The notes under the pieces were generated by a model. The model had not been told where the DNA came from, ran no database searches, and saw only the letters and a list, made by a program, of their open reading frames with translations. Of a DNA stretch of 64,000 bases, positions 27,573-52,606 are shown piece by piece. How positions within the stretch are numbered: the first letter of the stretch is position 1; each line of letters begins with the position of its first letter. A program made the position numbers and the translations under genes. Source of the DNA: Ascochyta rabiei (Eukaryota > Ascomycota > Dothideomycetes > Pleosporales > Didymellaceae); the NCBI RefSeq assembly GCF_004011695.2, contig NC_082420.1, positions 434,001-498,000 on the forward strand, in the 5' to 3' direction.

Positions 27573-28928
27573 ATGCGAGGAATGCAAACATCAATCAAAC
27601 ATGGAGAGATTGTTCCAACATCATGGGACCTTGATGCTGCTTACCTCAACAACTCGATGACTTCCCCAACTAAACCCCGTCTCAGTGTCATCACATCCTT
27701 CAGCTCCAATCGCGACTCAGTCAAGACCCGCAATGTCTCTAACCCCTTCAGCCTTGCAATACCCGGCCGTTACAGCCAGAGATCATCGCGTCCAATCTCG
27801 ATACCACTGAGTATCAGACCAGCCAGCTCCATCTATTCCCAAGATCAAGACGAAGCGAAAGACAAGCTCACACCGCTAAAGCCAGCTGTCATCGTTGCTG
27901 AGCGGCCGATTCGGCCACATCCTCCGAACCGACAGTCGAAAGCACTGGCAGCGTACTGCAAGCATCGCAATCCGTACTCGTCAGAGAAGAGGAGGTTCCA
28001 TGTTACTTACTGGAAGATCGACGATCGAGTGCTGGCCCTTGCGATCACGCTGACGCTGGCGCTTTTGACCATGATTGGGGTGCCTCTTGTTGCTGTGTTG
28101 GCACAGAAGCTCATCGTGCAGTTGCCGGTTAATGTACTTGTGCCTTCGTACGCATTTCCCGATGCCGGGTCGTGGAGCCGGTTGTACGATGCGTAAGTAC
28201 CATCCTTATTACTGCGCTCACGGATCTTAGTGTGGCTGATATTTCAAAGCATCGCACGGCACCAAGACACCAAGTTTACAATAATAATCAATCCGGACAA
28301 CGGCCCGGGGAATGCGACTCGACCGAGCCCCGAGTATGTTGACGTTCTCAATACCTTGGAGGTTTTCCCTCATGTGCAAACACTCGGATACATTCGCACA
28401 GCTGGCGGGACTCGCGATAATGCAACCATCCGCGCCGAGATAGCGACATACAGTGGCTGGTCAAATTTTCAGGATCTCAAGCTGAACGGCATCTTCTTCG
28501 ACCAAACACCATCCAAAGACGAAGGAAGTGCTCGCGAGTATCTCCGAAACATTAGTGCTACAGTACGGCATTCTGAAGGATTCCTAGAACCGAGACTAGT
28601 GGTGCATAACCCTGGTTGTGCACCAGATGCAGGGTTGGTGCGGTATAGAGTCGACGTGGTTGTTGTATTTGAGGGCTTGTACTCTGATCTACCGAGTCGT
28701 GAACAGTTGAAGAATCAATCCAAAGACCTGGAACAGCACAACATGCACAGGGAGAACTTTGGGATGCTGATACATTCGACGCCTTCAAACATTGGCAACA
28801 TAGGATTGAGGAAAGTCATAGATAGCCTGCGACGAGACACTCAGTGGCTGTACATTACGGATTTGATTGAGGACGTGTATGACGGGTATGGCTCGCTGTG
28901 GGAACAGTGGCTTAGTCTGACCTGGTAA
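27573..28928 (+). CDS. Membrane-anchored spherulation-specific family 4 (spherulin 4) protein
   Basis: Two exons, 27573-28192 and 28250-28928, give 432 residues. The N-terminal 150 residues are Ser/Pro/Arg-rich and cytoplasmic-looking. A single membrane segment follows at about 153-176 (VLALAITLTLALLTMIGVPLVAVL). Then the spherulin-4 domain: VPSYAFPDAGSWSRLYDA, the junction to IARHQDTKFTIIINPDNGPG, HVQTLGYIRTAGGTRD, and LNGIFFDQTPS. The NPDNGPG and GIFFD motifs are diagnostic. This is a TIM-barrel-like secreted fold of unknown function, possibly polysaccharide-related, here tethered as a type II protein. The intron acceptor at 28249 gives the family-like LYDAIARH. The start could also be the second ATG at 27582. 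Confidence 0.85.
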
Positions 28929-32971: not shown

Positions 32972-33856
32972 TCAGTGTAACACTCTGAATCTGCCAGCGC
33001 CAAAACCCGATAGCACACAATTCACAATAATACGGGAGAGGAGACGATTCTCCCGATACTTGGTATCATTCCTGAATGTTGCTATGCGCCACTCATTCTT
33101 CCACATCGCCACAGCTTCATGGGAACACGCGCTTTTGGTTTGCATATGTTCAGCGACCACGTAAAATGACGACCAGATAGCGTGTTTCTCCCTTGGTTCA
33201 AACAGCTGTCATGGCGAGAATCTGCTAAATGTGTGAAGCAAGAAAACAGTAACCCATGCGTCGAATTTGGGCAATACAGTAACAGATTTTCCATCCTTCC
33301 TGACACGCTGTAATGCCAGGACAGGTTGACTCGTTAGCAGCCGCCATGCTTCGCGTGTCTCATGATACTCCGCTCTAGTATGCGTCCGGAGGACTTGTCC
33401 ATCGCAGAACACGAGGTCAATATTTTCTCTAGAGAATGGGCGTTCCAACAAGAAACTCATAGCATCAAAGTGCTCCGCTGGAATGTTGGTCAAGTCCATC
33501 TCTGCCGATAACATTGTGATATCAAGAAATTCAAATTGTCTCCTTGAATCCAATCGCCAATTAGGCAGCAGCATATTATTTCCACCTTGCGAAATTAGCA
33601 AATTGATTCCGTAGATCCTTAAATCACTGTTCTCGTCAAGAACGGAGGCTGTGAAGCCGCCGGGCGCCATGCAGAGGTCGAGGACAGTGAGTTGCTTATC
33701 ACAAGCGGAATATGTCGATGAAGCTGATTCAAAGCTGTGGAATTCGCTGCTAATCTGTCCCATTATCTTGTAGAATATTTGTTCACCGGACCTGTCGCAT
33801 GATCGGCCCGCGACCGCTGTGCTTTGAAGTAATCGTCTCCTCGCGGATTCTTCCAC
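32972..33856 (-). pseudogene. FtsJ-like methyltransferase gene with one premature stop
   Basis: The SAM-binding start of an FtsJ/RrmJ-type methyltransferase is clear: LDLCMAPGGFTASVLDEN. It is followed by a DITMLSAEMDLTNIP segment, LVFCDGQVLRTH, and VLPKFDAWVTVFLLHTFSRF. At 33211-33209 an in-frame TGA (after SP) cuts the protein at 215 residues. The same frame then continues for 78 more codons with family-like sequence: QLFEPREKHAIWSSFYVVAEH, WKNEWRIATF. A CGA to TGA transition explains this. The TGA is followed by CAG, not CTA, so programmed readthrough is not suggested. It lies next to an AT-rich tract (33990-34250). In Pleosporales these genes occur as expanded families, and the substrate is unknown. 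Confidence 0.75.
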
Positions 33857-33989
33857 CCCGACTCAAATACTAAGTATGATTGCTGACTTTACGCTCAATA
33901 ACTGACCCTATGTCTAAGATCTGAGAGCTCACAATAAACAACTGAATGCTTGATTAAGTAGTTCTGAACAATCGATTTTGGGCTTCGAG

Positions 33990-34250
33990 TGGTTGTTTCT
34001 TTTGACTATAGCTATAGTCAATATACCTTTAGCTCTAGACTTATATATAGTTACTCTATACTCTTCTATCTCTGCCTATAGACAGCGTATACAATTCCAA
34101 GTTGATAAGTATAGCTAAGTATATTAACTAGTGTAATACGTACTAGGTCTTAGAGAGTAAATAGTTCTAGTGTTAGGCCTTTAATTTTCCTATCTTACAT
34201 TCTAGACGCCTAACGCTATACTAGCACAAGTGGGGTATAGGCCTAAAAGC
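33990..34250. repeat. AT-rich, TA-dinucleotide-rich tract (RIP-like relic)
   Basis: A run rich in TATAG, CTATA, TTAG and TAGT words with few CA or TG dinucleotides, embedded in otherwise balanced sequence. This is the appearance of a repeat relic after RIP. No reading frame or terminal repeat survives. The remaining parts of 33857-34693 show nothing gene-like. Confidence 0.6.
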
Positions 34251-34693
34251 TTGCCTCACATGAAATAAGACAAGGTTTTGTAGTTGAGGTTGAACAGATT
34301 GTTTCGAGGGAAGCAAATCAATGAGTGTAATTCTCGCTACTTAAGTCTTTTCACTTAATAAACCGTGCAAATCCCTGCCTCTTACTATACTCGCCAAAGA
34401 GCGAACCTAATGGTTATCCATGTTCGCGTTACCAAGGAAATGTAGTGCTATGCTGCGTCTACTACCGACATTCTACCTTCAGTCCTGCAATCGGGCATAC
34501 GATAGAGCTTTGACAGCAAACCGAGACGTGAAATTTGATGCGCAAGACGCTTTTGCTAAGAACATCCCAACTAGATGGTTCTTCAACAAAGGGTTTGCGC
34601 CTCATGCCCATGCTAAACCCTGTATCCGAGAACTGCACAGGCGTTAGCAAGAAACCTTACACATGATTCACGTTTGATTACCTTATGTTGAAA

Positions 34694-35350
34694 TTAGTTC
34701 TTGCCAACTTGGTAGGCAGTAGCAGCATCAGCGTCTGATCGCTTTCCCACCTGGTAGACAGTGGCAGCGTCAGCGTCCGATCGCTTTCCCACCTGGTAGA
34801 CAGTGGCAGCGTCAGCGTCTGATCGCTTTCCCACCTGGTAGGCAGTAGCAGCATCGGCATCTGATCGCTTTCCCACCTGGTAGACAGTGGCAGCGTCAGC
34901 GTCCGATCGCTTTCCCACCTGGTAGGCAGTGGCAGCGTCAGCGTCTGATCGCTTTCCCACCTGGTAGACAGTAGCAGCATCAGCGTCTGATCGCTTTCCC
35001 ACCTGGTAGGCAGTGGCGGCATCGGCATCTGACCGCTTGCCAACTTGGTAGGCAGTGGCAGCGTCAGCATCTGATCGCTTTCCCACCTGGTAGGCAGTAG
35101 CAGCGTCAGCGTCTGATCGCTTTCCCACCTGGTAGGCAGTAGCAGCGTCAGCGTCTGATCGCTTTCCTACCTGGTAGGCAGTGGCAGCGTCAGCGTCAGA
35201 TCGTTTGCCAACTTGGTAGGAAGTGGCAGCGTCGGCGTCGCTTCGGCGGTAGACTGGCTCTGCTGGAAGGTTGGTGCCGCGAGCAATGTTGTAGGTCGGT
35301 GCAGCGCTGGCAGCGCCAGCCAAGAAAGTGGCGTAGGTGGTAAAACGCAT
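34694..35350 (-). CDS. Kex2-processed repeat precursor of a dikaritin-type RiPP
   Basis: One exon, 218 residues from the ATG at 35350. Residues 1-18 (MRFTTYATFLAGAASAAP) are a signal peptide. A short leader ends in the dibasic Tyr-Arg-Arg. Then come thirteen uninterrupted 14-residue repeats S-D-A-D-A-A-T-x-Y-Q-V-G-K-R, where x is Ala (8 copies), Val (4) or Ser (1); the last copy ends Lys-Asn and stop. Every repeat is bounded by Lys-Arg, the Kex2 signal, and each has one Tyr followed by Gln-Val-Gly. This is the architecture of UstA-type precursors, where Kex2 releases units and UstYa-family oxidases cyclise a Tyr-containing core. Two UstYa-family genes lie within 4 kb, one divergently transcribed. 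Product structure is inferred; the precursor type is strongly supported. Confidence 0.92.
   Translation of the reverse strand: MRFTTYATFLAGAASAAPTYNIARGTNLPAEPVYRRSDADAATSYQVGKRSDADAATAYQVGKRSDADAATAYQVGKRSDADAATAYQVGKRSDADAATAYQVGKRSDADAATAYQVGKRSDADAATVYQVGKRSDADAATAYQVGKRSDADAATVYQVGKRSDADAATAYQVGKRSDADAATVYQVGKRSDADAATVYQVGKRSDADAATAYQVGKN
34697..35242 (-). repeat. Thirteen 42-bp tandem repeats coding for the core units
   Basis: 546 bp of direct 42-bp repeats with no spacers. Copies differ by a few synonymous changes plus the Ala/Val/Ser switch. Variant copies are interspersed (for example alternating Val and Ala near the 3' end), which suggests unequal exchange or slippage. This is a coding repeat, not a CRISPR. 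Confidence 0.95.
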
Positions 35351-35973
35351 ATTGCAGAAGCGGTCGAGATGATACAAGTTGTTGGTGTGAAGTGAAGGTA
35401 GCTGTAGCGATGGGATTCTACTGTTTTACTGTTCTCATCGACTGTGGGACTTTTATATGCCTTGTGGTCGACAGCAAGCCACCGAACGTTACCATGACGA
35501 TTATTGACAAATACCACAACTCACCTTGCAGCTCTACGTTTGCTGACAGACTGTCATTGAGCCATAGAAATTTTCACGACGCGCGGTAAGGTCAAGCAAG
35601 CCGTAATCGACGAGTGTGTACAGTGCATTGAGAATTGTGAAAGCGTTGTTAGCATCATGACGTTGCCCGTGAAGATTGGGTAAATGGTGCCTTGACCCTA
35701 CATATGCACAGTATATGCAATGTCAACGACTGTGTTTCAGTATCACAATGATTGACGATGCAGAAATTCCTAACGTGATGCTGTTCTCGTCCACTCACAA
35801 CACGATACATGTAAGCACTTGGCCCGATCAGTACAATGGGCAGTTGCATTCTCAACCGACACCAACTCGTTTCTAAAAACGCGAAAAATATGCTCAGGAA
35901 GGCCCCCAGATGAGCGACAAAGCAATTCACAGCCTGCAATACCTTCTTCCAAACTACTGCCAGCCCCATCGCG
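35351..35973. promoter_or_regulatory. Divergent promoter of the RiPP precursor and UstYa-like gene 1
   Basis: The 623-bp spacer separates two genes transcribed away from each other, the usual layout for co-regulated biosynthetic genes. On the precursor side GCATATAAAA (- strand, 35460-35451) is a good TATA box about 100 bases before its ATG. No obvious long palindrome is seen by eye. Confidence 0.6.
35451..35460 (-). promoter_or_regulatory. TATA box of the RiPP precursor
   Basis: GCATATAAAA read on the - strand, about 100 bases upstream of the start codon at 35350. It suits a strongly inducible small secreted-protein gene. Confidence 0.6.
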
Positions 35974-37125
35974 ATGGCCGACGAGGAAAGAACTCAGCAA
36001 TCCTTGAGTGAGATCCCGTTTCTCGACAAAGAAGAGAAACATGACGAAGAATTCCTGGACTGTGATGAAGTGCTACATAAAAGACCCAAAACTCGCTCAT
36101 GGCTACAGAGAAACCGCAGTGCGGTTATATGTCACGGGCTGATGATCTCTTGCTATCTTTTGATCACAGCTGTACTTTGGAACACTCACGTCGAACTAGG
36201 ATCTGGCTCCGACCATCTTCTTTTCAGTGAGTTTTTGGAAATCCGACACAACTGAACGTACTGATCTGGCGTGTAAAACAGCTCCCATTAAGGATAACAT
36301 CCGATACGTCGTCAAAGAGATAAAGGATAGTCCTCGCGATATTGTCTCTAGCGAGTATGTAGGAACCCCCACTCCAGAGACTGAGAAAGCCTGGGAAAGA
36401 CTTACACGTTGTGAGTAACTCGCCCGTGATTCACGATCCAGACCCGCATGACTGAAATACCACTAGTTCATAATCTTCGCATCACTGAAGAAGAGATGCA
36501 TGCGATGAACCTGAACACCTCTAATGCAATATCGTTTGCGCGTGGTGGAGGCTATCACGGAATGATGGGTGTGTTCCACGAGCTGCACTGCTTGGTCAGT
36601 ACCGAGATGTGCATAGTTAAAGCTCACCACCGGACTCACCAGCATCGCAGAAGCTCGTCAGAGAAGCGACTCGTCCAGACCACTACTACAAGAATAAAGG
36701 CAAAGCCGAGCGAGCGGTTCTCGCAGGACATACAGGTATCTCTTCAATGAAATTTGGCACAAAAGCCAAGACTAATCTGTGCAAGACCACTGCATCGAGA
36801 TCCTTCGCATGGGAGCTATGTGTCGAGCTGATCCCATGATATTCCCGTACCACTGGGTCGATGCAAATCGAGTACCCAATCCCACGTGGATTCAGAATCA
36901 CGAATGTGTGGATTGGGACCATTTCGAAGAATGGCTCGAGACACGCCGAGTGGACATTCATGCACCGAATGTTCTGGTTCACCCTCTTTATGGTTAGTGA
37001 TAGTCGCTTCTTGTGTTTGAAATGCGAATGTTGAGAAATTGTGTGATTTAGGTCCAACGTATCCGGGCGGTAAAAGTATCAAGGAATCTAACGGTCCACA
37101 GTGGTATCCATTAGATCCCGAGTAG
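35974..37125 (+). CDS. UstYa-family (DUF3328) oxidase 1, predicted RiPP cyclase
   Basis: Six exons (35974-36226, 36282-36410, 36467-36594, 36651-36735, 36786-36992, 37052-37125) give 291 residues with every junction in frame. A cytoplasmic N-terminus is followed by one membrane segment at about 49-70 (AVICHGLMISCYLLITAVLW). The lumenal domain carries both family motifs: HELHC in VFHELHCL, and HTDHC formed across the exon 4/5 junction (GHT|DHCIEILRMGAMC). Both are full HxxHC. UstYa-family proteins are thought to be metal-dependent oxidases that cross-link the Tyr of dikaritin cores. Here the gene is divergent with a repeat precursor, so that role is likely. The C-terminal segment has YPGGKS and ends PLDPE. 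Confidence 0.9.
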
Positions 37126-38066
37126 ATCTTGACAATGGATTACTTGTTGATCATTGCCGTGTATGACATAGAAGTTGGAGTCAAGTACGCTTCGGAAGCT
37201 GTTCGAGGCGTTCGCGCATTAAAACAGATGCAGTGTAATCCTAGTTTCCTAAGATATGCAATCCCCTTCACACTATATCGTACTCCGTAATCACTTAGAC
37301 ACGTCTTATGAGAGTCTAAATGTGGTTGCATCGCGTGATCGCCGAACTTGTTGAACGTGCTGCGCGTCCGGAACCGGGTCTTTTCTAACTACAGTTGGGT
37401 CTCCTCTGTCGGGCGGTGCAACTTGTTCTCTAATCTTCCCATATGAGGATATCAATCGTATGCGAGGGTTCACGGTTGAAGGTGTTGTTGGATATGTGTC
37501 AGAAGCTTGGGAGAGTTGCTTTTGAAACAAGGGTTTCGAAGATGTTGTAACGGCATTCACTATGCAGCTTCAGACCCCGTGCTTCCTTGGTATCATGAGT
37601 AAGTAGTTTGACGAAGTCGTCATGAAGAATTTCCCCTATTGGTAACTAATTTCAGTACTGTAGCGAGTATTCAGTCATAATGATCGATTTCCTGAAACCA
37701 ACTACTGAGCTTGGTGGATAGATTAATGGTAAGTAGCTAGTTATTAGCCTAGGCCAGCGTGTATTTGAAATATCATAGGTCGAGGGTAATGAATACGCGA
37801 CAACTACTCTCTGATAACGAGCCGAGTTCATAAATCAAAAGCAGTTTCCATTCGCATAAAGCAAGCTTCTTAGCAAGTGTGTAACAACTCCAAGTATGAG
37901 CATGAAGGCTCAGAAGAAAGACACAAAGACTGTACAACGATTGGGACAGTCTAAGCTGGATGTTACTTTGGATGACAAAATTTGCAACACTTGTAACCGA
38001 ATTCCCGGTCTTCGTCTCATAAGATGGAGATACAGCGGGCAAGTCACAAACAACACAACCTCACGC
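37126..38066. other. Convergent spacer between the two UstYa-like genes
   Basis: About 940 bp between convergent genes. An 84-codon frame on the - strand (37560-37306) and a few shorter ones have no recognisable domain or signal peptide. A small RNA or a second short precursor cannot be excluded, but no dibasic-bounded repeat is present. Confidence 0.5.
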
Positions 38067-39202
38067 CTAGTGTCCATGTCCTCCGTGCTGTAAATGAGGA
38101 GTACTATCGACAGCACCAAGCTTATCGCCCGTTCCCTGGGGATACGCAACACCTACATTTGACAATTAGTCATCGTTCGGACCAACGGGGTAGCACATTA
38201 TTGACTAACCTTTGGTAGGATGAACAAGCCAACCAGGCTTCATCATATCGACAGTATTCTCCTTAGTCCAGCGATCCAACTTATCCCAATTAACGCACTG
38301 ATGCGACGTCGCGTTTGCAACCGGAATCAAGCTATTATCGTGCCACTCGTAGGTGATGAGACCGATGTCTCCGTGGCACATGGCTGACATGCGGAGGAAA
38401 TCGATGCAATGTTCTGGTGCTTTGTTAGTCATATGTGGGGTTGCATGTTGGTGGGTAGAACTCACCGTTGTGCATGCGATTGAGTTCGTGCTGGCGGGGA
38501 CTGAAGTCTTTGAAATAGTATTCAGGATACATGAATTGATGGATGCGTTTCAGGCAGTGGAGTTCGTGGTACACGTTGAGTGTGCCGATGAAGCCACCGC
38601 CCTCGGGGACTGCGACACCGATGTTCTCTCTGGCGTAATGCTTCATGTACTTTGTGTCGATTTTGATGTTCTCGGCTACGATTTTGCATCAATGATCGTA
38701 CTTTTGCTTCTTGTGTAGTGGCATACTCACCATTCAAAAGATCGTGCCATGCTTGATCAAGCTTGGGTGTTGGCCTTCCAGCGTATTCGCCACCTTCCTG
38801 GATGAAGCCTTCCATTTTGAAAATGGTGTCTTCGTACTGAATAGCATCCGCGGCAGGAGCTGTTCCTCGTATCAGTAAGAGGCAACACATGGTTGATATG
38901 GTGAAATGGATGGGTTACATACAGAATGCAATGGCCGTGTTCACGCTTCTAGTCTGATTCTTCAGAACTACAAATATCCCAGTGAAGTACAGCATGAAGA
39001 GAACCACATGTCCAGCGATGAGGCGTTTCTGTCGCCAGACGGGTGTCGGCGCGGGTTCGTAGCGTCTAGTCCTCTGAAGCAATCCATTTTCAGACTCCTT
39101 GTCATATGAGGAGCGTGAGTCTTGCGTATCGGTGGACACCGAAGTATATCCTGAGCGGAAAGTATGCCAGGGGAAGTATTTTGTGCGGCCAAAGTACGCC
39201 AT
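38067..39202 (-). CDS. UstYa-family (DUF3328) oxidase 2
   Basis: Five exons (39202-38923, 38859-38731, 38675-38466, 38419-38210, 38152-38067) give 304 residues, all in frame. A membrane segment sits near residues 64-80 (GHVVLFMLYFTGIFVVL). Motif 1, HELHC, is intact within NVYHELHCLKRIHQF. At the position of motif 2 the sequence reads A-P-E-H-C (HN|APEHCIDFLRMSAMC), so the first His of HxxHC is missing although the His-Cys pair and following helix are conserved. Dikaritin clusters normally carry two or more UstYa homologues that act together, so this may be a partner with altered metal ligation. It is convergent with UstYa-like gene 1 and shares its orientation with the bZIP gene upstream. Confidence 0.88.
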
Positions 39203-39812
39203 GATCGTGAGAAGATCTATTTTATGGATAGTTGAAGTGTATGAGCACCGTAAATGCAGCGCTACTGAAATTCGAGTATACTGGGAACGAGCCTTGGAGA
39301 CATTGCTGTTGTCGTTGGTGATTGTGGTCATGACTTGCCGGACGAAGAAGATCACGTGGCCGCACGTATCCTGCACTGTCTTTCATCAGCACTGACAGTG
39401 CATGATGTCCGTGCGGCTGTGGGTTTGCAGATAAAATGGACGCCTGAAAAGGCGATTCTTGGCGTAAGATCTACCTTCCCGTAACACTGCATGACCATAA
39501 TGTATGCAGGGTAAAACTGCGCGAAGCTTAGTGTTGCGCTACTTGGCTCTAGGAAGGTAGTATAGGTGTGAGCATTGGAATACTTCAGTTTGATTTCAGA
39601 ACCATGCTCGTGTTCGGGGAACGAGGTGACGCTGGGGAGAATTGGTCCTTTCTCAACCGCCGCTACCAGCAATTGTATCACAGCCTGCGCTTACTCATTT
39701 CAGCTCAACATTCTCGTTCCAGCAGCTTTCGGCATGAAGATGGATTCTGGTAATTTCTACGACTTTGAAGTTGGTCGCTGCACGCACAGTAATTGCGTTT
39801 GGTACTTCGGTT
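39203..39812. other. Spacer between UstYa-like gene 2 and the bZIP gene
   Basis: About 610 bp. It should hold the promoter of UstYa-like gene 2 and the 3' end of the bZIP gene. A 109-codon - strand frame (39681-39352) lacks any feature that would mark it as a gene. Confidence 0.45.
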
Positions 39813-41021
39813 CTACTTGATGACCTTTAACATGTACAGAAAAACACAGATTGCTTGCGAGATATCGTTGTCCGACACATTCAGGTTCCGAGCCAAGTTT
39901 GACAACAGAGACCAGATACCCGGTACCTGTGTGATTGCATTTGAGCTATTGACCTTGATCCATGTTGTCTTGATATACATACCTGTTCGCGCAGATACTG
40001 CCTGTCGCGTTTCCAAATGTCTTTCGTTGTCTCGTCCTCGAACAATTGGTTTATCATGGTCCCTACAAACGCTCGCTTCCTTATCTCAACCTCGTTACTG
40101 CATAGCCCTGTCTCTGCTAGTTGTTGGAATTCCTCTTCATAGGACCGCTCCATAGCGAGTACACGTTCCTCATGATATCCTTGTGCCTCCTTACCGGTCC
40201 AGGTTTTGGAACTTTCGTGCAAATCAATTAGAAACTGGCGAAGTCGCCTGCTGCGGCTTGCTGATTGCGCGTAGAAAGGCAACGAGCCTTTTCTGAATTT
40301 CGCTGTATAGTAGTCTGTGATGACAACATCGAAATTCTCGAACCCCATCCCATCCGCTGCGTGAAGAACGTGGCCTATGCGGTCTTCTAACCTTACTGGT
40401 GGTTGTGAATCCAGTGGTAGATGAGCACCAACTGGTAAACTGTCGCTATCGAGGACAGAACTGAGCTGATCGAACAAAATCTTGGATGTGGAGTCGAATC
40501 CATTCGTAAGGCCATGCTGCGCGACGACTTGGCTGGCGAGAAATGCTCGTTCCATCACAAAGTCTGATTGCTGATAAGAAGATGGTCCTTGACCAGTGTG
40601 ACCCCAGGACTGATCCTGATATTGATGTGAAGGGAAGATGGGATCGAAAGCGAGCGGTGCATCCTGCTCAAAATTTGAAAGGTTTTCTGACGTTGTCATG
40701 ATCGATGTCGCAGCTGTGACTGAGCTTCCCGTGGATATGGAGGAGATGCGACCATGACTCGAGGTTGACGGGCATGTCTCGTGGTCATCGCCAGAGTCCA
40801 TGGTATTTGCCATATCAGTAACTTGCTGTCTCTCGCGACGCCCTGGAAGTCGTAGTCAGTAACTCGGAATTACGCTACTTATGCAATGCTTTTATGGGAG
40901 TGGACGCAGCGAAGAACAGAACAAGTCAGGACTTACTTCTACGATGTGTGCGCTGAGCCAGTCGATTTTTAGTCCGTCGAGCTTCGATTGCTATTTGTGA
41001 TTCATCAATCTGGAATTCCAT
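39813..41021 (-). CDS. bZIP transcription factor, candidate pathway regulator
   Basis: Three exons (41021-40937, 40842-39983, 39926-39813) give 352 residues. The first exon encodes a bZIP basic region, RRTKNRLAQRTHRR, continued by RRRERQQ after a 94-bp intron: the N-x-x-A-Q-R-x-x-R fungal Yap-like signature. The leucine zipper is weak or short, as in many fungal bZIPs that instead carry a C-terminal helical domain (DUF3425-like). The rest is Ser/Gln-rich with a C-terminal helical portion ending SNLARNLNVSDNDISQAICVF. It sits in the RiPP locus, 0.6 kb upstream of UstYa-like gene 2 and co-oriented with it. A pathway-specific role is an inference from position. Confidence 0.83.
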
Positions 41022-41469
41022 GAGTAAGCTGGATCTGCTTGTCGAACAATAGGCTGGCGTGAGGGAGCTCAGATTCGACAACGATCCGACCTCGCCGCAA
41101 TGATACTTATCCTCTAACTACTGCATTATGCTCTGCATCGTGCTTATTGGCTGATGATTACGAAGGATGCTGACCCTGGGTCTTTTCGATGACAGTTGCT
41201 TCTAGATCCGAAAACGGTTTGAGGCAGGGGGGATCCGCAGTCCTATTGGGTATGAGGGCTGGTGACACAGTAAGCTGCTACCCTCCTTGCGGTGCGACGT
41301 ATGGTGCCTTCATTTTAGTGTAGATCTCTTTATCCTCGTTGGCACCTTCCAAAGACGGACAGTGCTGCGTGCTGAAGGATCTGTACGGCGCAGGCGCGTC
41401 GCACATTATTTACCAAAGCTTTCAGCGATGAAGTGAGATTCTAAGCGCAGAAGAGCATTGGTACCTTAG

Positions 41470-42060
41470 CATTTCACTTAGCTACACCTAGTAAATTTAA
41501 GAAATTAATCTTCAACGCTATACTTATTTAGATATCTAGGTGGCTTATTTATTTAGCGTAACTATAATATATCAGTCAACTAATTCCAACCAATAATAAT
41601 CGATTTACTCTTAATAGCCTACCAATTCTATTATTCCTCTTTTATAACTTATATTCTAGGTCTTTCTAAAATCTAGCTGAATTTATTTTAGATGTTTAGT
41701 CTTAAAAAATTTACACTAGTATATAGAGTAACAGCCTTAGTAGTTTCTAAAGATACTTAGTTAACTTAGTAACTAGAACTAGTATAAGAACTAGATCTAA
41801 TAGTATTTCTAAGATTTATATATCTTAACTTTAGTTATTTAGGTAAAGTATATACTAATCTCATATATTGTTTCTCTCTTCTAGACTGTGGTCTGTAAGT
41901 ACTTTTAAGTTTTAATCTTGTTGATTTTTTTTCTCTATACTAGCTTCAGCCTACATTTGTTATAAGCTTAAGCTTTAAATAATTTTATAACCTATAGATA
42001 CGTAGCTAATATAACTAAAGTGCGGGGTATGTTAGGCAGAAGCGCGCGCTAAGCTGCTAA
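41470..42060. repeat. AT-rich RIP-like tract between bZIP and MFS genes
   Basis: About 590 bp dominated by TTAG, CTAA, TATA and AAGT words, far more AT-rich than the genes on either side. No coding frame or terminal repeats remain. It looks like an old transposon relic eroded by RIP. It ends about 160 bp before the MFS start. The sequence 41022-41469 is ordinary promoter-like DNA of the bZIP gene. Confidence 0.65.
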
Positions 42061-42222
42061 TAAAGTAACGCTACTGTTAGGCGAGTGGAGGTAGAATCTT
42101 ACCTGAATGCTAAGCATTTGGCTTATTACTTGCCCTCACCCGTTCCATTCACTTCCCATCACCTATTCCTTGTCATTACGCTCAACCTCACGCTTTTTTG
42201 CAATATACGGCCAGGTTCGAAA

Positions 42223-43850
42223 ATGGTATCTGAAGAGAAACCACCATCACGTCCGGCGTCGCTGGACATCGAGCAACCAGCAGTCACTACAGAAACCGAG
42301 AATCTGGCAGAGGATCGCTTGGAGAAACTATCTCGAGTCTATGGCGTACGCAGCCCTTATTGTTACACAAAGAAGTAAGACAAGTTTCGCTGATTCTCGC
42401 AGTGTACGTGGGATGGCCCGGACGACCCTGAAGACCCATACAATTGGTCCTCTTTTCACAAAATCATGATTGGCACCATTTTCTCATTTGGTCAGCTCGT
42501 CACGCTCATGTCTGCCAGCATGATAGCTTCAGCACTCGGTGAAATCGCTCACGATTTGGACACCACTGCGTCCACAGGTCAAATCATTCTCTCCACCTAC
42601 TTTCTTGGTCTAGCTTTCGGACCATTCCTGGCTGCTGCATTGGCCGAGATGTATGGTCGAAGACCAATATGGATCTTTGGCAATGCATGGTACATCCTAT
42701 GGAACGCGATCTGCCCTGTTGGCAATTCTACGGGCCTCATGATCTTTGGAAGACTCATGACAGGTGTGGGCGCCAGTGTCGGAATTACGGTATGTGCTCT
42801 GTGATAATCTTATCAGATCTGCTTCTTTGATGCTAACGCTTGTCGTAATGACAGCTCACAGGGCCAGTCATGGCAGATTTGTATCGTGAGAAAGATCGAG
42901 GCAAGTCGCTTGCCATAGCGTCCCTACTACCCTATCTTGGTCCAGCCTTGGGGCCGATTGTCGGTGGTATCGTTACCCAACTTGTTAAATGGACCTGGGT
43001 CTTTTGGATCATGAGTCTCTTTAATACAGCTGTCACGATTGTGGGTATCATCTATATCAGGGAAACTTACACGCCCGTACTCCTTCGCCGCAAGGCTGCT
43101 GCGCAGAGCAATGCCGCACCGCCCACCATCGTACCCGGCTCCATTCTAGGTGTTTGGAAAGATTTCGCTTCTCGGTTATCAGGCCATCTCATGCGACCAT
43201 TGCGCTTACTCTTCACACGACCTATCATCCAGTTCATCGCCTTGGTACTAGCACTGAATTTTGGCGTATACTGCTTCATGCTTTCGACCTTCGCCAGCCT
43301 TTGGATCAACAAGTATAACCAATCCGAACTGGCTAGTAGTCTTCACTACATCTCCATCGCTATCGGCTCTACCATCGCAGGTCAGGCTGGTGGGCATCTA
43401 ATGGACTTTGTCTACAACAAGCTCAGCAAGCGGAATGGTGGACAAGGCAAACCAGAATTCCGCGTACCTTACCTGGTTCCCGGTTTAATCCTTATGCCTG
43501 CAGGGTTATTCTGGTACGGGTGGTCTGCGCAATACACCATTTCGTGGGTCATGGTTGACTTTGGAGCTGCCATCTTGACACTAGGCAGTTTTGTGTCAGC
43601 GCAGGCTATGTACGCCTACCAGTTGGATGAGTTCGCGGAATTCGGTGCTTCAGCCAATGCGGCATCCCGAATGTTCTCAGCTGTCATGGGTTTTGCGTTC
43701 CCTATCTTTGCCCCACAGCTGTATGAGGCACTAGGCTATGGGTGGGGAAACAGCCTATTAGCATTCATCATGATTGCCATCGGCTTCCCGATACCCATCA
43801 TTTTATGGTTCTGGGGCCAGAAATTGAGAGCCCTTGGAAAGAAGGATTGA
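42223..43850 (+). CDS. MFS drug:H+ antiporter (DHA1, TPO1/FLR1-like)
   Basis: Three exons (42223-42345, 42403-42789, 42855-43850) give 501 residues. The 41-residue N-terminal exon is cytoplasmic. Twelve membrane segments follow with the DHA1 markers DPEDPYNWSSFHK before the first helix, GRRPIW after helix 2, and GPVMADLYREKDRGKSLAI in helices 4-5. Central loop and helices 7-12 are complete, with FAEFGASANAASR near the end. DHA1 antiporters of this type export small hydrophobic or charged metabolites at the plasma membrane. As the first transporter beside the RiPP genes it is the best candidate for product export or self-protection. The gene looks intact. Confidence 0.9.
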
Positions 43851-44162
43851 GGGGGTGGACGATCTCTGGAGTGCCCATCAGCAGGCTGACTAGTGATGTC
43901 TCATCAACAGTTAGCTGGAGGATTTCCGTGAGTATGATAATGCGTAAGGATATCTCAGCAAGGAAGTTACTGCATAAAATTTAATATAAAGGCTTGCATC
44001 ACTCTGCTTTTCTGCATGTTAAGAGTGTGACTGTGCATACATCGCCCAATTCGGCCACGGCTACGGGTTGGTACGTTGGGCTAGATCCAGCGTTTGATCA
44101 TCTGATAAAACTTGCTCAACATCTGATAAGTTCCCCGCCACGACTTCGAGGCAAACAGCTTA

Positions 44163-44204
44163 CCATGTCCGTGCGCGTGATGCACGGATTCGCGTGATGC
44201 ACGC
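44163..44204 (+). repeat. Left terminal inverted repeat of the Fot1-like element
   Basis: 42 bp identical to the reverse complement of 46249-46290, with an internal direct duplication of CGTGATGCACG. Confidence 0.93.
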
Positions 44205-44252
44205 GATCACCAAAATACACCAATCTCCTTGATACCACAACTCAACGCCACA

Positions 44253-46007
44253 ATGTCAATAGAGGCTGCCCTTGCAGAGATAGATGCTCTGAAGCCAGGC
44301 GAACAATTCACGTATACAGCAGTTGCAAAAAAACACAGTGTTGTAAGATCTACGTTGTCGCGAAGGCACTGAGCCATTTGCGCAGCTCCTATTAACAAGA
44401 ACATTAACCAGCAACAGTTGATGCTACAACAGGAGATAGAGCTTGTAAAGTACATAGAATTGCTTACTGCCTGTTACTTACTACCTACACAAGAGATAAT
44501 CCAGAATTTCGCGTCACTAATAGCCCAAAATCCAGTCTCCGAGAGCTGGGTTACGCGCTTTATTAACAAGTACTCCATCTATCTCATCTCGCGTTACTCA
44601 ACTGGGATGGATCGCTAACGTTACAACGCGGATTCCTACAATAAATACAAGCTCTATTTTAAACTACTGCAGCACAAAATCTCTGAATACTCTATTGAGA
44701 GTCGCTACACATACAATATGGATAAGAAGGGCTTCATGATTAGGGTCACAGGTAGAACAAAACACGTCTTTAGCAAGCGTATGTGGATAAAGGGAGAGGT
44801 TAAATTATTTATCTAAGATAGTAATTGGGATTGGCAGACGCTTATAGCATGTGTATGTGCTAATAGATCAGTAGTGCCGCTAGGCCTCATCTACAAGTCC
44901 TCTAAAAACACCATCAAATCAGGCTGGGTAGCCGAAATCAAACCAGGGGTACACTCTGTGATAGTTACATCATCTGCCTTAGGGTGGTCAAATAGGGATA
45001 TAGGCCTTGCCTGGCTTGAACAGGTGTTTGATCGCTACACTAAGGACAAGGCACAAAGCCAATGGCGGCTATTGATCTTAGATGGCTATGGATCACACGT
45101 CATAATGGATTTTATTAACTATTGTGACAACAACAGGATACTCCTAGCTGTGTTACCTCCTCACTCAACTCAGACGCTTCAACCACTTGATGTGGTGCTG
45201 TTTAAACCTCTATCAACAGCATACTCAAAAGCACTCACAACGTGGATCTATAAGTCTCAAAACAAGTCATTAATTACAAGAGCAGACTTCTTTCGACTAT
45301 TCTGGCAGGCGTGGGTGAGTAGCTTCACAGAAAAGCTAATACTTAAGTCCTTTGAGGCAACGGGTATAGAACCACTTAAACCTAACGTTATCCTCCGCCG
45401 CTTTGTTAAAACACCAGAGACCTCAGATTCAGATAAGAGCTCATCCTCTGTTTACAGTAACGAAGATTGGCTCAAAATGGAGTCGTTGTTGCGGCGTGTT
45501 GCCAAAGATCAGGGCAGCAGTGACGCCAAAAAGATGGGACAATCGATCCACCACATCTCAGTTAAAGCCTCACTCCTCCAACACGAGGTAGATGGCCTCA
45601 AAAAGACGTTGAAGACGCAGAAGAAGCACAAGAAGAAGAATAAAACCTTAGATCTACAACAACAGGAGGAATACCATAGTGGTGCTGTGTTTTGGTCTCC
45701 TTTAAAAGTAAGAGAAGCACGCTTCCGTGAAAGGATAAAACAACAAGAGGAGAGAGAGGAGAGGCTTAGAAAAGCGACTAATAAGGAAGTAGCAGCCGCC
45801 AAGAAGCTTGTTAAGGAGAAGGAGAAGGAGGAGAAGCGTGTGGCGAGAGAGGTGGCCAAGGAGGTGCGAGAGAAGGAGAAGGCTGAGGCAGCGATCCAAA
45901 AAGCCGAACGGCAGGCTGAAAAGCAACGTCAACAACAAGAGCGCAACACTGCAAAAGCTACACAACTGTCCCAAAAGGGGAAGAGAAAAGCTTTACAAGC
46001 AACCTAG
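44253..46007 (+). pseudogene. Pogo/Fot1 transposase with three in-frame stops
   Basis: One continuous frame from ATG 44253 to the stop at 46007 is broken only by TGA at 44370, TAA at 44616 and TAA at 44814. All are explainable as C to T changes (CGA or CAA). The N-terminal part is a CENP-B-like helix-turn-helix region (ENP..SESWVTRFINKY pattern). The catalytic Asp residues are visible in YNMDKKGF, LLILDGYGSH and LQPLDVVLFKPL. A long charged coiled-coil tail rich in Lys, Glu and Arg follows (about 45600-45990). In the first motif the common Glu after Asp is Lys. The protein cannot be made at full length. Confidence 0.9.
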
Positions 46008-46248
46008 CCAAAAAAGCGTCAAAAACGTGGTTAAAATAGTAATGTTGGTGATGGTAGTCCTGCGGCGCGGCCCCCATCTCCTCCACCCAAAACCACAACA
46101 CGTGGCCGCAACGTCAGACTACCAGCAAAATTCAAATAGTACATCTTTTTCGCAAGCAATCAATTACTACTACACCTTAGTTTCTCGTGATAATAGCTGT
46201 TGTGGGTGGCTCAATAGCCTCACCCTGTTTTGGTGTGATTTGGTGCTG

Positions 46249-46290
46249 GCGTGCATCACGCGAATCCGTGCATCACGCGCACGGACATGG
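46249..46290 (-). repeat. Right terminal inverted repeat of the Fot1-like element
   Basis: 42 bp identical to the reverse complement of 44163-44204, directly followed by the TA target duplication. Confidence 0.93.
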
Positions 46291-46636
46291 TAGTGCTTAT
46301 TGTTGTGGGTCATGCACGGCAAGGGGCCGTCAGCTTAGCTACCTTATCGCCGGCTGCAGACCCCTGTTCCGCGCATAAGCACCGTAGCTTGTTTTACGCG
46401 GCGCTTGGCTGCAGGCCACCACGACCATCTACGGGACGTCAATGAACGTTCCTTTGTAAGGGGTGTCATGACATAAAGACTACGCCACAAGCCGGTCAGC
46501 TCCAAGATAAGCGAAGTCGTATACCCTGCTGCGTTGATTGCATTCAGACGGTGACAGTATGGTACTATGATGTACACTACTCCAACCAAGGTACCCAAGG
46601 TGTCCCGTTGTCCAAGAGTGACGCAGCTTCCTTACC

Positions 46637-49411
46637 TCAACAGTGTCCAGCGGGGCAACCGAGACCCGTACCCCACCGGTGTCCTCCAACCCCCAGTAAT
46701 GACAAAGCGCAATTAATCGTTCCACCAATTCCCTCGCCAGCCACCATTCCAGCAGCAACGGCAATGCCGAATTCTTCAAAAGCTTGGAAATGCTTCCAAC
46801 GCCAAGCATTAGCCACAATCGTGCCTATGGCCATGGTCAACCCGTACTGTGGTGCTGGCACAGTGAACGCCAAGGCTACCATCATCATGTTTGGGTAAAA
46901 TCTTCGCGCAGCCGCCCACCTGCCCTTCAACAAGAACTGCTCCACAGCAACCATCACGCAACCGACAACAGCAAACACCAACGAGAATTCCCGGCTCGAT
47001 GCAGAGACGGGAAGGTGTGGTTCGCTAGCCGCTACTGCCACAGCTTTCCAAGACGCAATTCCCGGAGCCGGAAACTCGCAGTCGTCTTTCGATGCATCGA
47101 TGATGCAAGGATAGGCTGTGGTGAAGAGCACAAAGATGCTGGGAGTGACCAGACATGCGCCGAGCGTACCTGAGTGGGACAAGACGTTAGCGGATTATTC
47201 CTGTGCGAGGGATAGTTCCGTGAATCAGTCGACCGCTTGTATCGGCAGCCGGTCTGCTCGTCAAGAGCCTTTTCTTGCATGTTGAGGCATCCTTTGCCCA
47301 GGCTTCTCGGCAAGCGCAAAGACAGCAGATTGTCGACCATCACCTAGGACTACATACCGATAATTTGCGCTAGAAATTGCGGTCCAGGCGGTGTACGCAA
47401 GAGGAAACCAACCCTGAAGTCGCTTATGAGGTCTAGATCGAATTAGGAACTCCTCTCAGTCGTTCACATGTCATAGATCTGACCTGTAGCGTGATTCGCG
47501 CCCATACTAGTGAGCGCACCCCCGATTAGATTGATACGTTCGGTCTCCTGAACAGAGGATCCTGATGCGCGGGCCATGGCGCCTAGGGTAACTTGAGATA
47601 CCTTTGATACTGTCGTGATTGGAGTGGTGTCTTTACAAAGATCAGCTTTCAATTGTTCGTACAAAGTGCTGAGTTGCTCACCAGTAGCACCTGTTGCCTG
47701 GATTGTGATCAAGGACATAAGGAATGCAAGTACAAGCGCTACAACAGTCTCCAGTATAGACATTTGGAACTGGCTTTTTGTTAAGATGCAGGCTGCGACA
47801 ATCACGAACAATAGGGAAGACCCCCAAGCCGTGAGGCTGAAGGCTTCGTTCTTCTCGGAACAGGGCGTTTCCTCATCCTCGGTCTCGTTGCCGTTTCCAG
47901 ATTCCAATCTGGTATAGTCGTACTGCGTTCGACCAATCAAACGTGCGATGACTGGTATCGAGGCTACAGCAGAGGTACGTAGGAGATTCCAAAGAACCCG
48001 GCCTTGGAAAGCAAGTTTGAGAAAAGCTACTGTGAGCATACACACAACACCCGGCCAGAGAAGCCAGTATCGCGCGCTAGGATGTTCAGCGTTGGCAAAG
48101 CCGTCTGACATGATCGTGTAGGAGGTAAGCCCAGACCAGTATGGATCTTTAGAAACAGGCTGGCCAAAAGCTAGACCACGCGAGACGAGATATGGCCCCA
48201 TGACTCCCCTGCATCCCGGATGTGTCAGTAGGTTTTTGAGGAAAAGATTGCAGCTATACGTACCATACCAAGACAGATCCAGCGAAGAATGAGCATACTA
48301 CGTTCGGAGACACTATCATGCCAGTACCTACCATGGCTGGAGAGAGTTCAAGAACCCATCCCCAACTCTCGGCCGCGATTGCGAAAGTGGAGACCATATT
48401 GAGGCTTCTCAGCCAGCCGAATATATGCCAGTCCTGCTCGTCGTCAGTTATTTCCAGTGCTGACCTGTAGTATAGACGTGGCCGCGCTGTTACCAATAGT
48501 ATACCCTTTGCGTACTGTGACACCACAGAATGTGTCATTGCGACGAGGAAACTGATGAGTGCATATTTCATACGCCTTCCAGCAATCTTCGTTCCGCTTG
48601 CTGCAGCATGCATATTGCGAATTGTGACCGCCGTAGCCATGGCAGTTGGAAAGACCAGGTTGAGCTCTCTGGCAACATTCTGTATGAAGAATTTCCGTAC
48701 TCTACAAGTCAGCATGCTAGCACTCGCTCGAGTATAGCTCATGACTTACACGGGTAGACCGACAACAGTCCAAAAAATCCGCCAATAGCAGTCAACATGA
48801 CAATCATCAGAAAGTCTTGTGACGGTGTTTTCAGCAATTCCAGTTGGTATAGGGCAGGGATGGCCGAAACAAACGTTGCTGACATGCCACCCGATGCAGT
48901 TGCAACCGTTTGAACAATGTTATTCTCGTGTGGTCCGAAGGGAAGCTCCGATGATGCAGCCCATTTCTTCAATACCGAGAAGCCAACGATTGACTATTTC
49001 ATCCTACAAATCAGCGAAAATATTGAAGTGCAAATCATCTCGAGCAATAAATGAACCCTCGCACACGGAAGTGATAAGGACAAGGTAGCTAACCTACACC
49101 AAGTCTATTTGCAATCAGAAAAAAGACTATTCGAGGTATAAAAAGGTTTATAAGGCAGCTCACATATTCGCAGACGACATCCACCCAGTTCTTAAACCGA
49201 GGTAGATGTTTGAAGCATTAACAAGTGTGCCGCATAGCATGCCCACCACCACGGCTCTTAAGGTGATGATATCTTTCGATGAAGAATCGCCAATGTCTTG
49301 CAGAGGTACAAAGGGATCTGCTGCAACATCTCCCATATTGTGATATACCGACTGTATCTCGTTCCAATTGGCCTCTCTGTTCAATCGCGTGTCGTCTGAA
49401 TCTCCAAACAA
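46637..49411 (-). CDS. OPT-family oligopeptide transporter
   Basis: Multi-pass transporter of the oligopeptide transporter (OPT) family, which moves tetra- and pentapeptides, glutathione-like compounds or metal chelates into cells. Clear exons are 48752-about 48990, 48701-48264, 48208-47484, 47432-47358 and 47169-46637; their junctions keep frame. An upstream exon (about 49411-49157) encodes ITLRAVVVGMLCGTLVNASNIYLGLRTGW, the family's first helix. I could not fix the small join between 49157 and 48990 or find an ATG in frame: the frame starts at TTG, so a 5' exon is missing from the model. Other family segments are SLISFLVAMTHSV-like helices, GVMGPYLVSRG and FGIAVAAGMVAGEGIGG. It lies between the Fot1 element and a sedolisin gene. 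Membership of the RiPP pathway is possible but unproven. Confidence 0.78.
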
Positions 49412-50071
49412 AAAGAGCTCTACAGCCAGAATATGGCAGAGGGCGGGATTTGGAGTATACTACGTGATGTACGGAGGTATGGGCCTCACACCGGGCCGAG
49501 CGGTTGCGCGGGTGCAACCCAATTGTATCCGAATGTACATAAGCAGGTGCAATGTCGGTGCATGGCTTTCACCGCATGACGCTTATGCACAGTAACTAAA
49601 CTCCATTCACCTTGGGTTTAGCGCTGACTCCAACCACTCTTGTCAGCGCGTTGTCGAATGCGTCAGAGATGCTGAGTGCGTTTCTGTTCAGTCACTGTTA
49701 CCGGTGTGCGAAATTGGCATCGGTTACTCCGGTCCTTTAAGTGCTGATGAGACCTACGTCGCGCTTTGGAGGAAATGGTCTCGGCGGTCTTATGACGAGA
49801 TAATTAATTTCTGAATTGCGATGACGACACACAGTGGTGAAGTTCAAAGTCACGTGACGTAGACATATTGGTCACGAGGATTCAAAGTACCGTCTTGCAC
49901 ATGCGCAGGCATAATTGATGTTGGACTACCTGCAAAATTGCTCCAAGCCTTGTGAAAGGAAGTGCCAATGGACCTAGTCGCTTTCCTATCCACGCCATGT
50001 CGCGTCGCCTAGTAAAAGGTACCATATAGATGTCGTCTACAAATCCTCCTGACCCCAAGAACAACTCTATA
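49412..50071. other. Spacer between OPT and sedolisin genes
   Basis: About 660 bp expected to hold the OPT promoter and 5' exon and the 3' end of the peptidase gene. No separate gene is supportable. Confidence 0.45.
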
Positions 50072-52132: not shown

Positions 52133-52606
52133 GGTTTCTCAAAAGACTTGATGTTGTGTGCACCTCAAACATCAGGTTCATCACTACGCTATCCTCGGTG
52201 TCGAGAAGTGGCGATGCGTCATGTGATCCTGCTTTTCTGCCTGCCGCCGTAGTCAGCAAGATTATCATGCGATCCGCAGGCATACCACGCTTAACGAATA
52301 AGAGGAGAAAGAAGCTTACTTAGGCTTAATTCGGGAAATGCTGGTAATGCACAGTCAACGCACTTCCTGCAGAGTCAAGCTCGCGCAACGGGCCGTTCGC
52401 GCTAGTACCAGTCTGACATATGGGTGGTCATGCATGTCAGACTATGCATCATCAACAAGAGCAACGACTAAAATCACAAACGGATGCCTCTTGATTTTGC
52501 AGCTCTGAGTGCTGCGATAAATGGACGTACTACTCTTACGCTATTTTCGTGCAGCACTTACTTGCTCCATGCCCACACTTGACACGCCAATCTCAAGCCC
52601 ACCAAC

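What the first reader, a model, noticed from the sequence alone, without database searches (positions are those of the whole stretch)
34694..43850. Compact fungal RiPP (dikaritin-type) locus: repeat precursor, two UstYa-family oxidases, bZIP regulator, MFS exporter
Seen: a signal-peptide protein with thirteen Lys-Arg-bounded 14-residue repeats, each with one Tyr. A divergently transcribed UstYa-family gene, a second UstYa-family gene, a bZIP gene and an intact DHA1 transporter lie within 9 kb. Known: ustiloxin, asperipin, phomopsin and victorin pathways pair a Kex2-processed repeat precursor with UstYa-family (DUF3328) oxidases. Inference: this is a ribosomal cyclic-peptide pathway. The Tyr-Gln-Val-Gly core does not match any core I know, so the product may be new. 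No tyrosinase, copper amine oxidase or S41 peptidase is visible between 33 and 54 kb, making this a minimal set.
Basis: partly seen in the sequence, partly recalled or inferred. Interest (0 to 1): 0.95.

Follow-up and report, generated by a model that had tools for sequence, protein, structure and literature searches.

The report
Fungal cyclic-peptide gene cluster, product unknown
A chickpea-blight fungus carries a small, intact gene set that probably cuts a repetitive protein into thirteen short peptides and cross-links their tyrosine; it belongs to a peptide family already seen in many other fungi, and its product is not known.

Summary
In Ascochyta rabiei, a 218-aa secreted precursor (34694-35350, -) carries 13 copies of SDADAAT[A/V/S]YQVG, 12 ending KR and one KN. 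It sits head-to-head with an intact UstYa-family gene; a second intact UstYa gene, a weak bZIP-like gene and an intact MFS gene lie within 9 kb. Both UstYa proteins equal public A. rabiei records and carry both HXXHC motifs; the precursor had no A. rabiei record in my search. The repeat family is not new: a 2019 survey lists DADAATXYV[A/V]D, and survey type G-6 (46 of 49 beside DUF3328 genes) is probably the same. In Akanthomyces muscarius such a precursor and homologues of both UstYa genes bear consecutive tags. RIP-like AT-rich blocks flank the four core genes, so the MFS gene may not belong. Most likely a dikaritin-type pathway making a Tyr-crosslinked small peptide; the chemistry is inferred.

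The parts
34694..35350 (-). KEX2-repeat precursor gene, 218 aa, single exon: signal-like N-terminus, short pro-region ending RR, 13 repeats
   Evidence: no A. rabiei record among the 3 hits (8000 candidates scored)
34697..35242 (-). 13 tandem 42-bp units encoding SDADAAT[S/A/V]YQVG-KR (last unit KN)
   Evidence: pN/pS 0.092 among units
35351..35973 (.). 623-bp shared divergent intergenic region between precursor and UstYa-1
   Evidence: gene starts
35974..37125 (+). UstYa-1 (public tag EKO05_0009063), 6 exons, 291 aa, one hydrophobic N-terminal helix, HXXHC at residues 165 and 197
38067..39202 (-). UstYa-2 (public tag EKO05_0009064), 5 exons, 302 aa, one hydrophobic N-terminal helix, HXXHC at residues 173 and 205
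39813..41021 (-). possible bZIP-like regulator, 3-exon model of my own (no public record compared), 352 aa; only a sub-threshold bZIP_Maf match
42223..43850 (+). intact MFS transporter, 3-exon model of my own, 501 aa; candidate exporter, outside the right AT-rich block
33900..34260 (.). left AT-rich RIP-like block (GC 0.36, TpA/ApT 1.77)
   Evidence: no second copy of 33900-34700 found
41440..42060 (.). right AT-rich RIP-like block (GC 0.29, TpA/ApT 1.71)
   Evidence: no second copy found

Best explanation
A dikaritin-type RiPP locus. The precursor enters the ER; Kex2 in the Golgi cuts after KR (and RR), releasing thirteen SDADAATxYQVG units, and a Kex1-like carboxypeptidase trims the KR. The two membrane-anchored UstYa-family copper oxidases recognise the near-invariant SDADAAT stretch and oxidise the adjoining Y-Q-V-G. 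The likeliest outcome is a Tyr-phenol ether to the beta-carbon of Val, two residues on, as Tyr is joined to Ile in ustiloxin; one of the two enzymes may instead do a desaturation or a second oxidation. An aminopeptidase then removes the tag and a transporter exports the product. Shown: gene structures, motifs, repeat conservation, the recurring trio. Inferred: processing order, recognition by the tag, crosslink, product, export, regulation.
For: Precursor architecture and constraint on the repeats. UstYa Pfam matches and intact HXXHC pairs; two such motifs are the marker suggested for RiPP-related DUF3328 proteins (passages of PMC12048977). Precursors from Blastomyces, Akanthomyces and an unnamed JGI record share DADAAT-x-Y-xxx-KR with Tyr fixed and the three residues after it variable. 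A. muscarius LMH87_005650 (UstYa-2-like), 005651 (UstYa-1-like) and 005652 (precursor) carry consecutive tags and one contig length. UstY enzymes are described as dicopper and O2-dependent, forming a Tyr-O to Phe C-beta ether in asperipin-2a (passage of PMC12186524).
Against: No expression or mass-spectrometry data. The bZIP call is below cut-off. Relatives end in Y-V-V-D, Y-K-A-D or Y-A-T-N, so the Val acceptor is not conserved in the family and the acceptor may lie elsewhere, for example the invariant Thr. Ustiloxin and phomopsin need a tyrosinase, absent from this window. Neither UstYa-1 nor UstYa-2 of Blastomyces, and no UstYa-1 of Histoplasma, was among the hits; four of 10 non-self UstYa-1 hits show no UstYa-2 partner.
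Confidence: 0.82

Rival explanations
1. The precursor yields linear secreted signalling or defence peptides (pheromone-like), and the UstYa genes beside it serve another substrate or make a minor change.
For: KEX2-repeat proteins include alpha-pheromones, and Le Marquer 2019 presents this motif in a survey of putative signalling peptides.
Against: The precursor and both UstYa homologues bear consecutive tags in A. muscarius. In Umemura 2020, type G-6, which this probably is, has DUF3328 genes nearby in 46 of 49 members, while KEPs annotated as mating factors or pheromones have them in only three cases. Read from its N-terminus the unit is not a clean series of X-Ala dipeptides (sequence).
Confidence: 0.1
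2. UstYa enzymes make dehydroamino acids or other oxidations on Thr, Val or Tyr rather than a macrocycle, giving a modified linear peptide.
For: Three UstYa homologues are needed for cyclisation and also for desaturation in phomopsin (passage of PMC10512285); Thr-x-Tyr is identical in the four precursors compared, whereas Val is not.
Against: Ustiloxin, asperipin-2a, phomopsin and epichloecyclins are described as cyclised in the passages I read; two distinct UstYa genes leave room for both reactions.
Confidence: 0.15
3. The locus is a silent relic.
For: RIP-like AT-rich blocks on both sides and a multi-copy transposon about 0.3 kb past the MFS gene.
Against: The precursor ORF and the four spliced models are open, with GT-AG introns, repeats are constrained, and 34697-41021 shows no RIP signature (TpA/ApT 0.70).
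Confidence: 0.08

Closest known systems
DADAATXYV[A/V]D KEX2-repeat family (Le Marquer 2019 motif 3; probably Umemura 2020 type G-6)
   Same: DADAAT-x-Y repeat with dibasic spacing; G-6 members sit beside DUF3328 genes in 46 of 49 cases, and 14 of its 19 genera recur among the hits (hand count)
   Different: A. rabiei has YQVG instead of YV[A/V]D; Ascochyta is not in the G-6 genus list (it is in those of G-8 and G-9); that G-6 is this family is inferred, as I could not see its sequence logo
Ustiloxin B pathway (ust)
   Same: 13/14-residue Kex2 units, core tetrapeptide YAIG directly before KR, two UstYa homologues; YQVG shares positions 1 and 4, with Val for Ile at position 3
   Different: ustiloxin has ED before Tyr and a tyrosinase in a 15-gene cluster (abstract of PMC4740483 in the listing); here AAT-x precedes Tyr and no tyrosinase is in the window
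Asperipin-2a pathway (apr)
   Same: small cluster without tyrosinase: precursor, UstYa homologue, transporter
   Different: core FYYTGY, one UstYa homologue, an extra reductase gene
Phomopsin pathway (phom)
   Same: repeat precursor plus several UstYa homologues; YVIP core
   Different: five UstYa homologues, tyrosinase and methyltransferase

Membership tests
Dikaritin (ust-RiPS) pathway | secreted precursor with KEX2-bounded near-identical repeats | tested here: met
   13 units, KR-bounded; signal peptide judged by hydropathy only
Dikaritin (ust-RiPS) pathway | UstYa/DUF3328 protein(s) encoded near the precursor | tested here: met
   two, E 2.4e-50 and 1.9e-55, about 0.6 and 2.7 kb away
Dikaritin (ust-RiPS) pathway | two HXXHC motifs in the UstYa proteins | tested here: met
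   HELHC+HTDHC and HELHC+HNEHC
Dikaritin (ust-RiPS) pathway | tyrosinase gene (in the original five-gene definition, later dropped) | tested here: not met
   none of 26 tyrosinase matches is in the window; nearest about 127 kb away; asperipin-2a also lacks it
Dikaritin (ust-RiPS) pathway | oxidatively crosslinked peptide product | not testable with these tools
   needs mass spectrometry
DADAATXYV[A/V]D KEX2-repeat family | DADAAT-x-Y in each repeat | tested here: met
   13 of 13 units
DADAATXYV[A/V]D KEX2-repeat family | V-[A/V]-D after Tyr | tested here: not met
   Q-V-G in 13 of 13 units; A. muscarius K-A-D and the JGI record A-T-N also depart
Ustiloxin/phomopsin EDYXI type | EDYXI motif in repeats (PMC6339444) | tested here: not met
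   each unit reads AAT[A/V/S]YQVG: no ED before Tyr, Val where Ile stands

The most novel reading that the evidence does not exclude
Each repeat carries its own recognition tag (SDADAAT) followed by Tyr and a freely evolving tripeptide, so that one conserved UstYa-1/UstYa-2 pair tolerates many cores across fungal classes. In A. rabiei, which acquired the locus by horizontal transfer from a Xylariaceae-like donor, the core has arrived at a ustiloxin-like Y-x-V-G macrocycle made without a tyrosinase.
Probability: 0.2. Interest if true: 0.72.

Novelty: new member of a known kind. Interest (0 to 1): 0.48.

Why it matters
A 2022 review counts only five reported dikaritins (passage of PMC10512285), against 1758 KEX2-repeat proteins with DUF3328 genes nearby in a 2020 survey. 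I found no characterised product for this repeat family in the paper searches (open-licence papers only). The A. rabiei member is compact and intact and gives exact mass targets. A fixed tag next to a variable tripeptide would make UstYa substrate recognition directly testable with synthetic peptides.

Tried and rejected

Pfam on the precursor: DUF6150 is above its cut-off (39.4 against 27 bits), as are Phage_Bbp19, TrmB and Curlin_rpt; the Blastomyces record also carries DUF6150. I judge these to be matches to the short Ala/Asp/Tyr repeat, not homology; that is judgement, not a test. A paralogous precursor elsewhere in the genome: none found (the only other match E 2.4, antisense to the same place).

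Horizontal transfer. UstYa-2 groups with two Xylariaceae (98/90), and holding Ascochyta with Aplosporella and Bathelium is rejected (p-AU 1.3e-5). Against a firm claim: I chose that group after seeing the first tree; one search warns of long branches (Hypoxylon rubiginosum, Zasmidium); I dropped five rows, Zasmidium among them; UstYa-1 leaves Ascochyta in an unresolved fork with Tolypocladium and Xylariales rows; hidden paralogy is possible. The trees used 41 and 36 of the 82 UstYa-2 hits and all 11 UstYa-1 hits. Fungal classes were assigned from memory.

The first spliced models were out of frame through an off-by-one in my start coordinates for three genes and were replaced.
Full report
What is there. 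The window lies in a 40.9-Mb genome as C16:434001-498000. The two UstYa proteins are 100% identical, over full length, to Ascochyta rabiei records EKO05_0009063 and EKO05_0009064, so this is A. rabiei, the chickpea blight fungus.

The precursor. A 218-residue ORF at 34694-35350 (-) begins MRFTTYATFLAGAASAA, a signal-like stretch judged by hydropathy only, has a short pro-region ending RR, and then 13 units of 14 residues, SDADAAT[S/A/V]YQVG-KR, the last ending KN and a stop. At position 8 the units carry A (8), V (4) or S (1); the other eleven residues of the 12-mer are identical in 13 of 13 units, although 11 of 13 units are distinct at DNA level. Over the 78 pairs of units, KR codons excluded, pS is 0.39 and pN 0.036, ratio 0.092. 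Pairs are not independent and units exchange sequence, so this shows constraint, not its exact strength. The protein search scored 8000 candidates and returned three relatives but no A. rabiei record, so the gene appears to be missing from public annotation.

The enzymes. UstYa-1 (35974-37125, +) starts 623 bp from the precursor in divergent orientation; UstYa-2 (38067-39202, -) converges on it. Splicing at GT-AG introns gives open models with Pfam UstYa at E 2.4e-50 and 1.9e-55, a hydrophobic segment near the N-terminus modelled as one long helix, and two HXXHC motifs each. Of the 93 UstYa-like records in hand, the window's two included, 72 have both motifs and 21 do not; 14 of the 21 are shorter than 250 residues.

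Neighbours. A 352-aa bZIP-like model (39813-41021, -) matches bZIP_Maf only at E 0.069, below cut-off; its basic stretch resembles the fungal NRxAQR pattern (recalled). An MFS gene (42223-43850, +) is open (MFS_1 E 2.8e-40). AT-rich blocks at 33900-34260 and 41440-42060 have TpA/ApT of 1.77 and 1.71 against 0.70 over 34697-41021, the pattern of repeat-induced point mutation (index recalled). No second copy of either was found (the tool skips simple and very common words). The precursor, both UstYa genes and the bZIP-like gene lie between the blocks and the MFS gene outside, so its membership is open. None of 26 tyrosinase or 4 S41-peptidase matches in the genome lies in the window. Copper amine oxidase was not tested.

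Relatives. Three precursor relatives were found: Blastomyces dermatitidis (SDADAATMYVVDKR), Akanthomyces muscarius (SDADAATAYKADKR) and an unnamed JGI record (ADADAATAYATNKR). Comparing one unit of each with the A. rabiei unit, columns 2-7 (DADAAT), 9 (Y), 13 and 14 (KR) are identical in 4 of 4, columns 1 and 8 in 3 of 4, and columns 10-12 vary. These records also hold variant units, such as one SDADTAT in A. muscarius and YATEAD in the JGI record, so the tag is nearly, not strictly, invariant. In A. muscarius the UstYa-2-like, UstYa-1-like and precursor proteins carry consecutive tags LMH87_005650, 005651 and 005652 and one contig length. Of the 10 non-self UstYa-1 hits, 5 (Cordyceps javanica, Xylariaceae FL0662B, Claviceps africana, Xylariaceae AK1471, A. 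muscarius) share contig length with a UstYa-2 hit; in three the tags are consecutive, in AK1471 six apart, and for C. javanica no tag was shown for UstYa-2. JGI-style DRAFT numbers need not follow gene order. A sixth, Rhynchosporium, has both on contigs of different length, and four show no UstYa-2 partner in the list. I could not see these neighbourhoods directly.

Phylogeny. In a tree of 41 UstYa-2 relatives (classes recalled), Ascochyta joins the two Xylariaceae (98/90) inside a Sordariomycete/Eurotiomycete group (96/88) and away from Aplosporella, Bathelium and Zasmidium. Holding Ascochyta with Aplosporella and Bathelium is rejected (p-AU 1.3e-5, 36 rows), though I named that group after seeing the tree. 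UstYa-1 places Ascochyta with Tolypocladium and Xylariales rows (96/97) without resolving a sister. This fits horizontal transfer or wide loss; hidden paralogy is not excluded.

Other UstYa loci in this genome. The 25 UstYa matches fall, by my grouping, into the window and 12 other places. KEX2-type repeat ORFs were found within about 5 kb at 3 of those 12, so this locus is one of at least four candidates in A. rabiei.

Literature. Le Marquer 2019 (PMC6339444; passages and section 10 read) already lists DADAATXYV[A/V]D as a conserved KEX2-repeat core of Pezizomycotina. It was the only fungal paper of two found in a full-text search for DADAAT. Umemura 2020 (PMC7329392; abstract, sections 3 and 6 and passages) describes type G-6, with Tyr and several Asp in its profile and DUF3328 genes near 46 of 49. 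Fourteen of its 19 genera recur among the hits, against 5 of 11 for G-10 (the ustiloxin type) and 3 of 18 for G-8 (hand counts). So G-6 is very probably this family, but I could not see its logo. The ArME14 genome paper has no occurrence of 'RiPP' or 'ribosomal' in its main text, and the A. pisi genome paper none of five RiPP terms. Ustiloxin units are 13/14 residues with YAIG before KR (passages of PMC6514808); ustiloxin A is YVIG and phomopsin YVIP. YQVG shares positions 1 and 4 with the ustiloxins and has Val for Ile at position 3. UstY enzymes are described as dicopper and O2-dependent (passage of PMC12186524), and some as also needed for desaturation (passage of PMC10512285). The primary 2025 enzyme paper was not held.

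Mechanism. Kex2 release, KR trimming, tag-guided oxidation by the UstYa pair, tag removal and export. Only the anatomy is shown. A Tyr-O to Val C-beta ether is the best guess for A. rabiei by analogy with ustiloxin, but family members with Ala or Thr at that position show that the acceptor may differ, and the invariant Thr is an alternative.

Verdict. A real, open and, as far as my searches show, undescribed member of a known dikaritin-type family whose product I could not find in print. Worth a knock-out and mass-spectrometry test, but not a new kind of system.

Noticed in passing
window 44161-46293: DDE_1 transposase element (ORF 44817-46004) whose ends match each other inverted over 63 bp at 94%; 40 long matches in the genome counting itself, with only 40 of 165 candidates scored, the nearest other copy 94% identical.
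   Followed up: partly
L014 9531-9899 (-) (C14): Repeat ORF with ten similar dibasic-bounded pieces around EVVVPDKGHYD, cut by the end of the fetched stretch, about 4 kb from another UstYa match: another candidate precursor.
   Followed up: no
L016 7108-7605 (+) (C9): Repeat ORF with four Tyr/Gly-rich units (DGYGKYASYG...) about 2 kb from a UstYa match.
   Followed up: no
L013 2300-3478 (-) (C1): Repeat ORF with five His-His units (EPHHKGKGRKG) about 1 kb from a UstYa match; Umemura 2020 reports di-histidine KEP types G-3 and G-8, and Ascochyta is in the G-8 genus list.
   Followed up: no
window 33212-33862 (-): FtsJ-like methyltransferase ORF 0.8 kb beyond the precursor's 3' end, left of the left AT-rich block; relation to the cluster unknown.
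   Followed up: partly
window 46640-52138 (-): Two OPT oligopeptide-transporter ORFs and a sedolisin-type protease ORF (Pro-kumamolisin) beyond the transposon; peptide-related but not linked by any evidence here.
   Followed up: no
window 28197-28925 (+): Spherulin4-family protein (E 2.5e-59).
   Followed up: no
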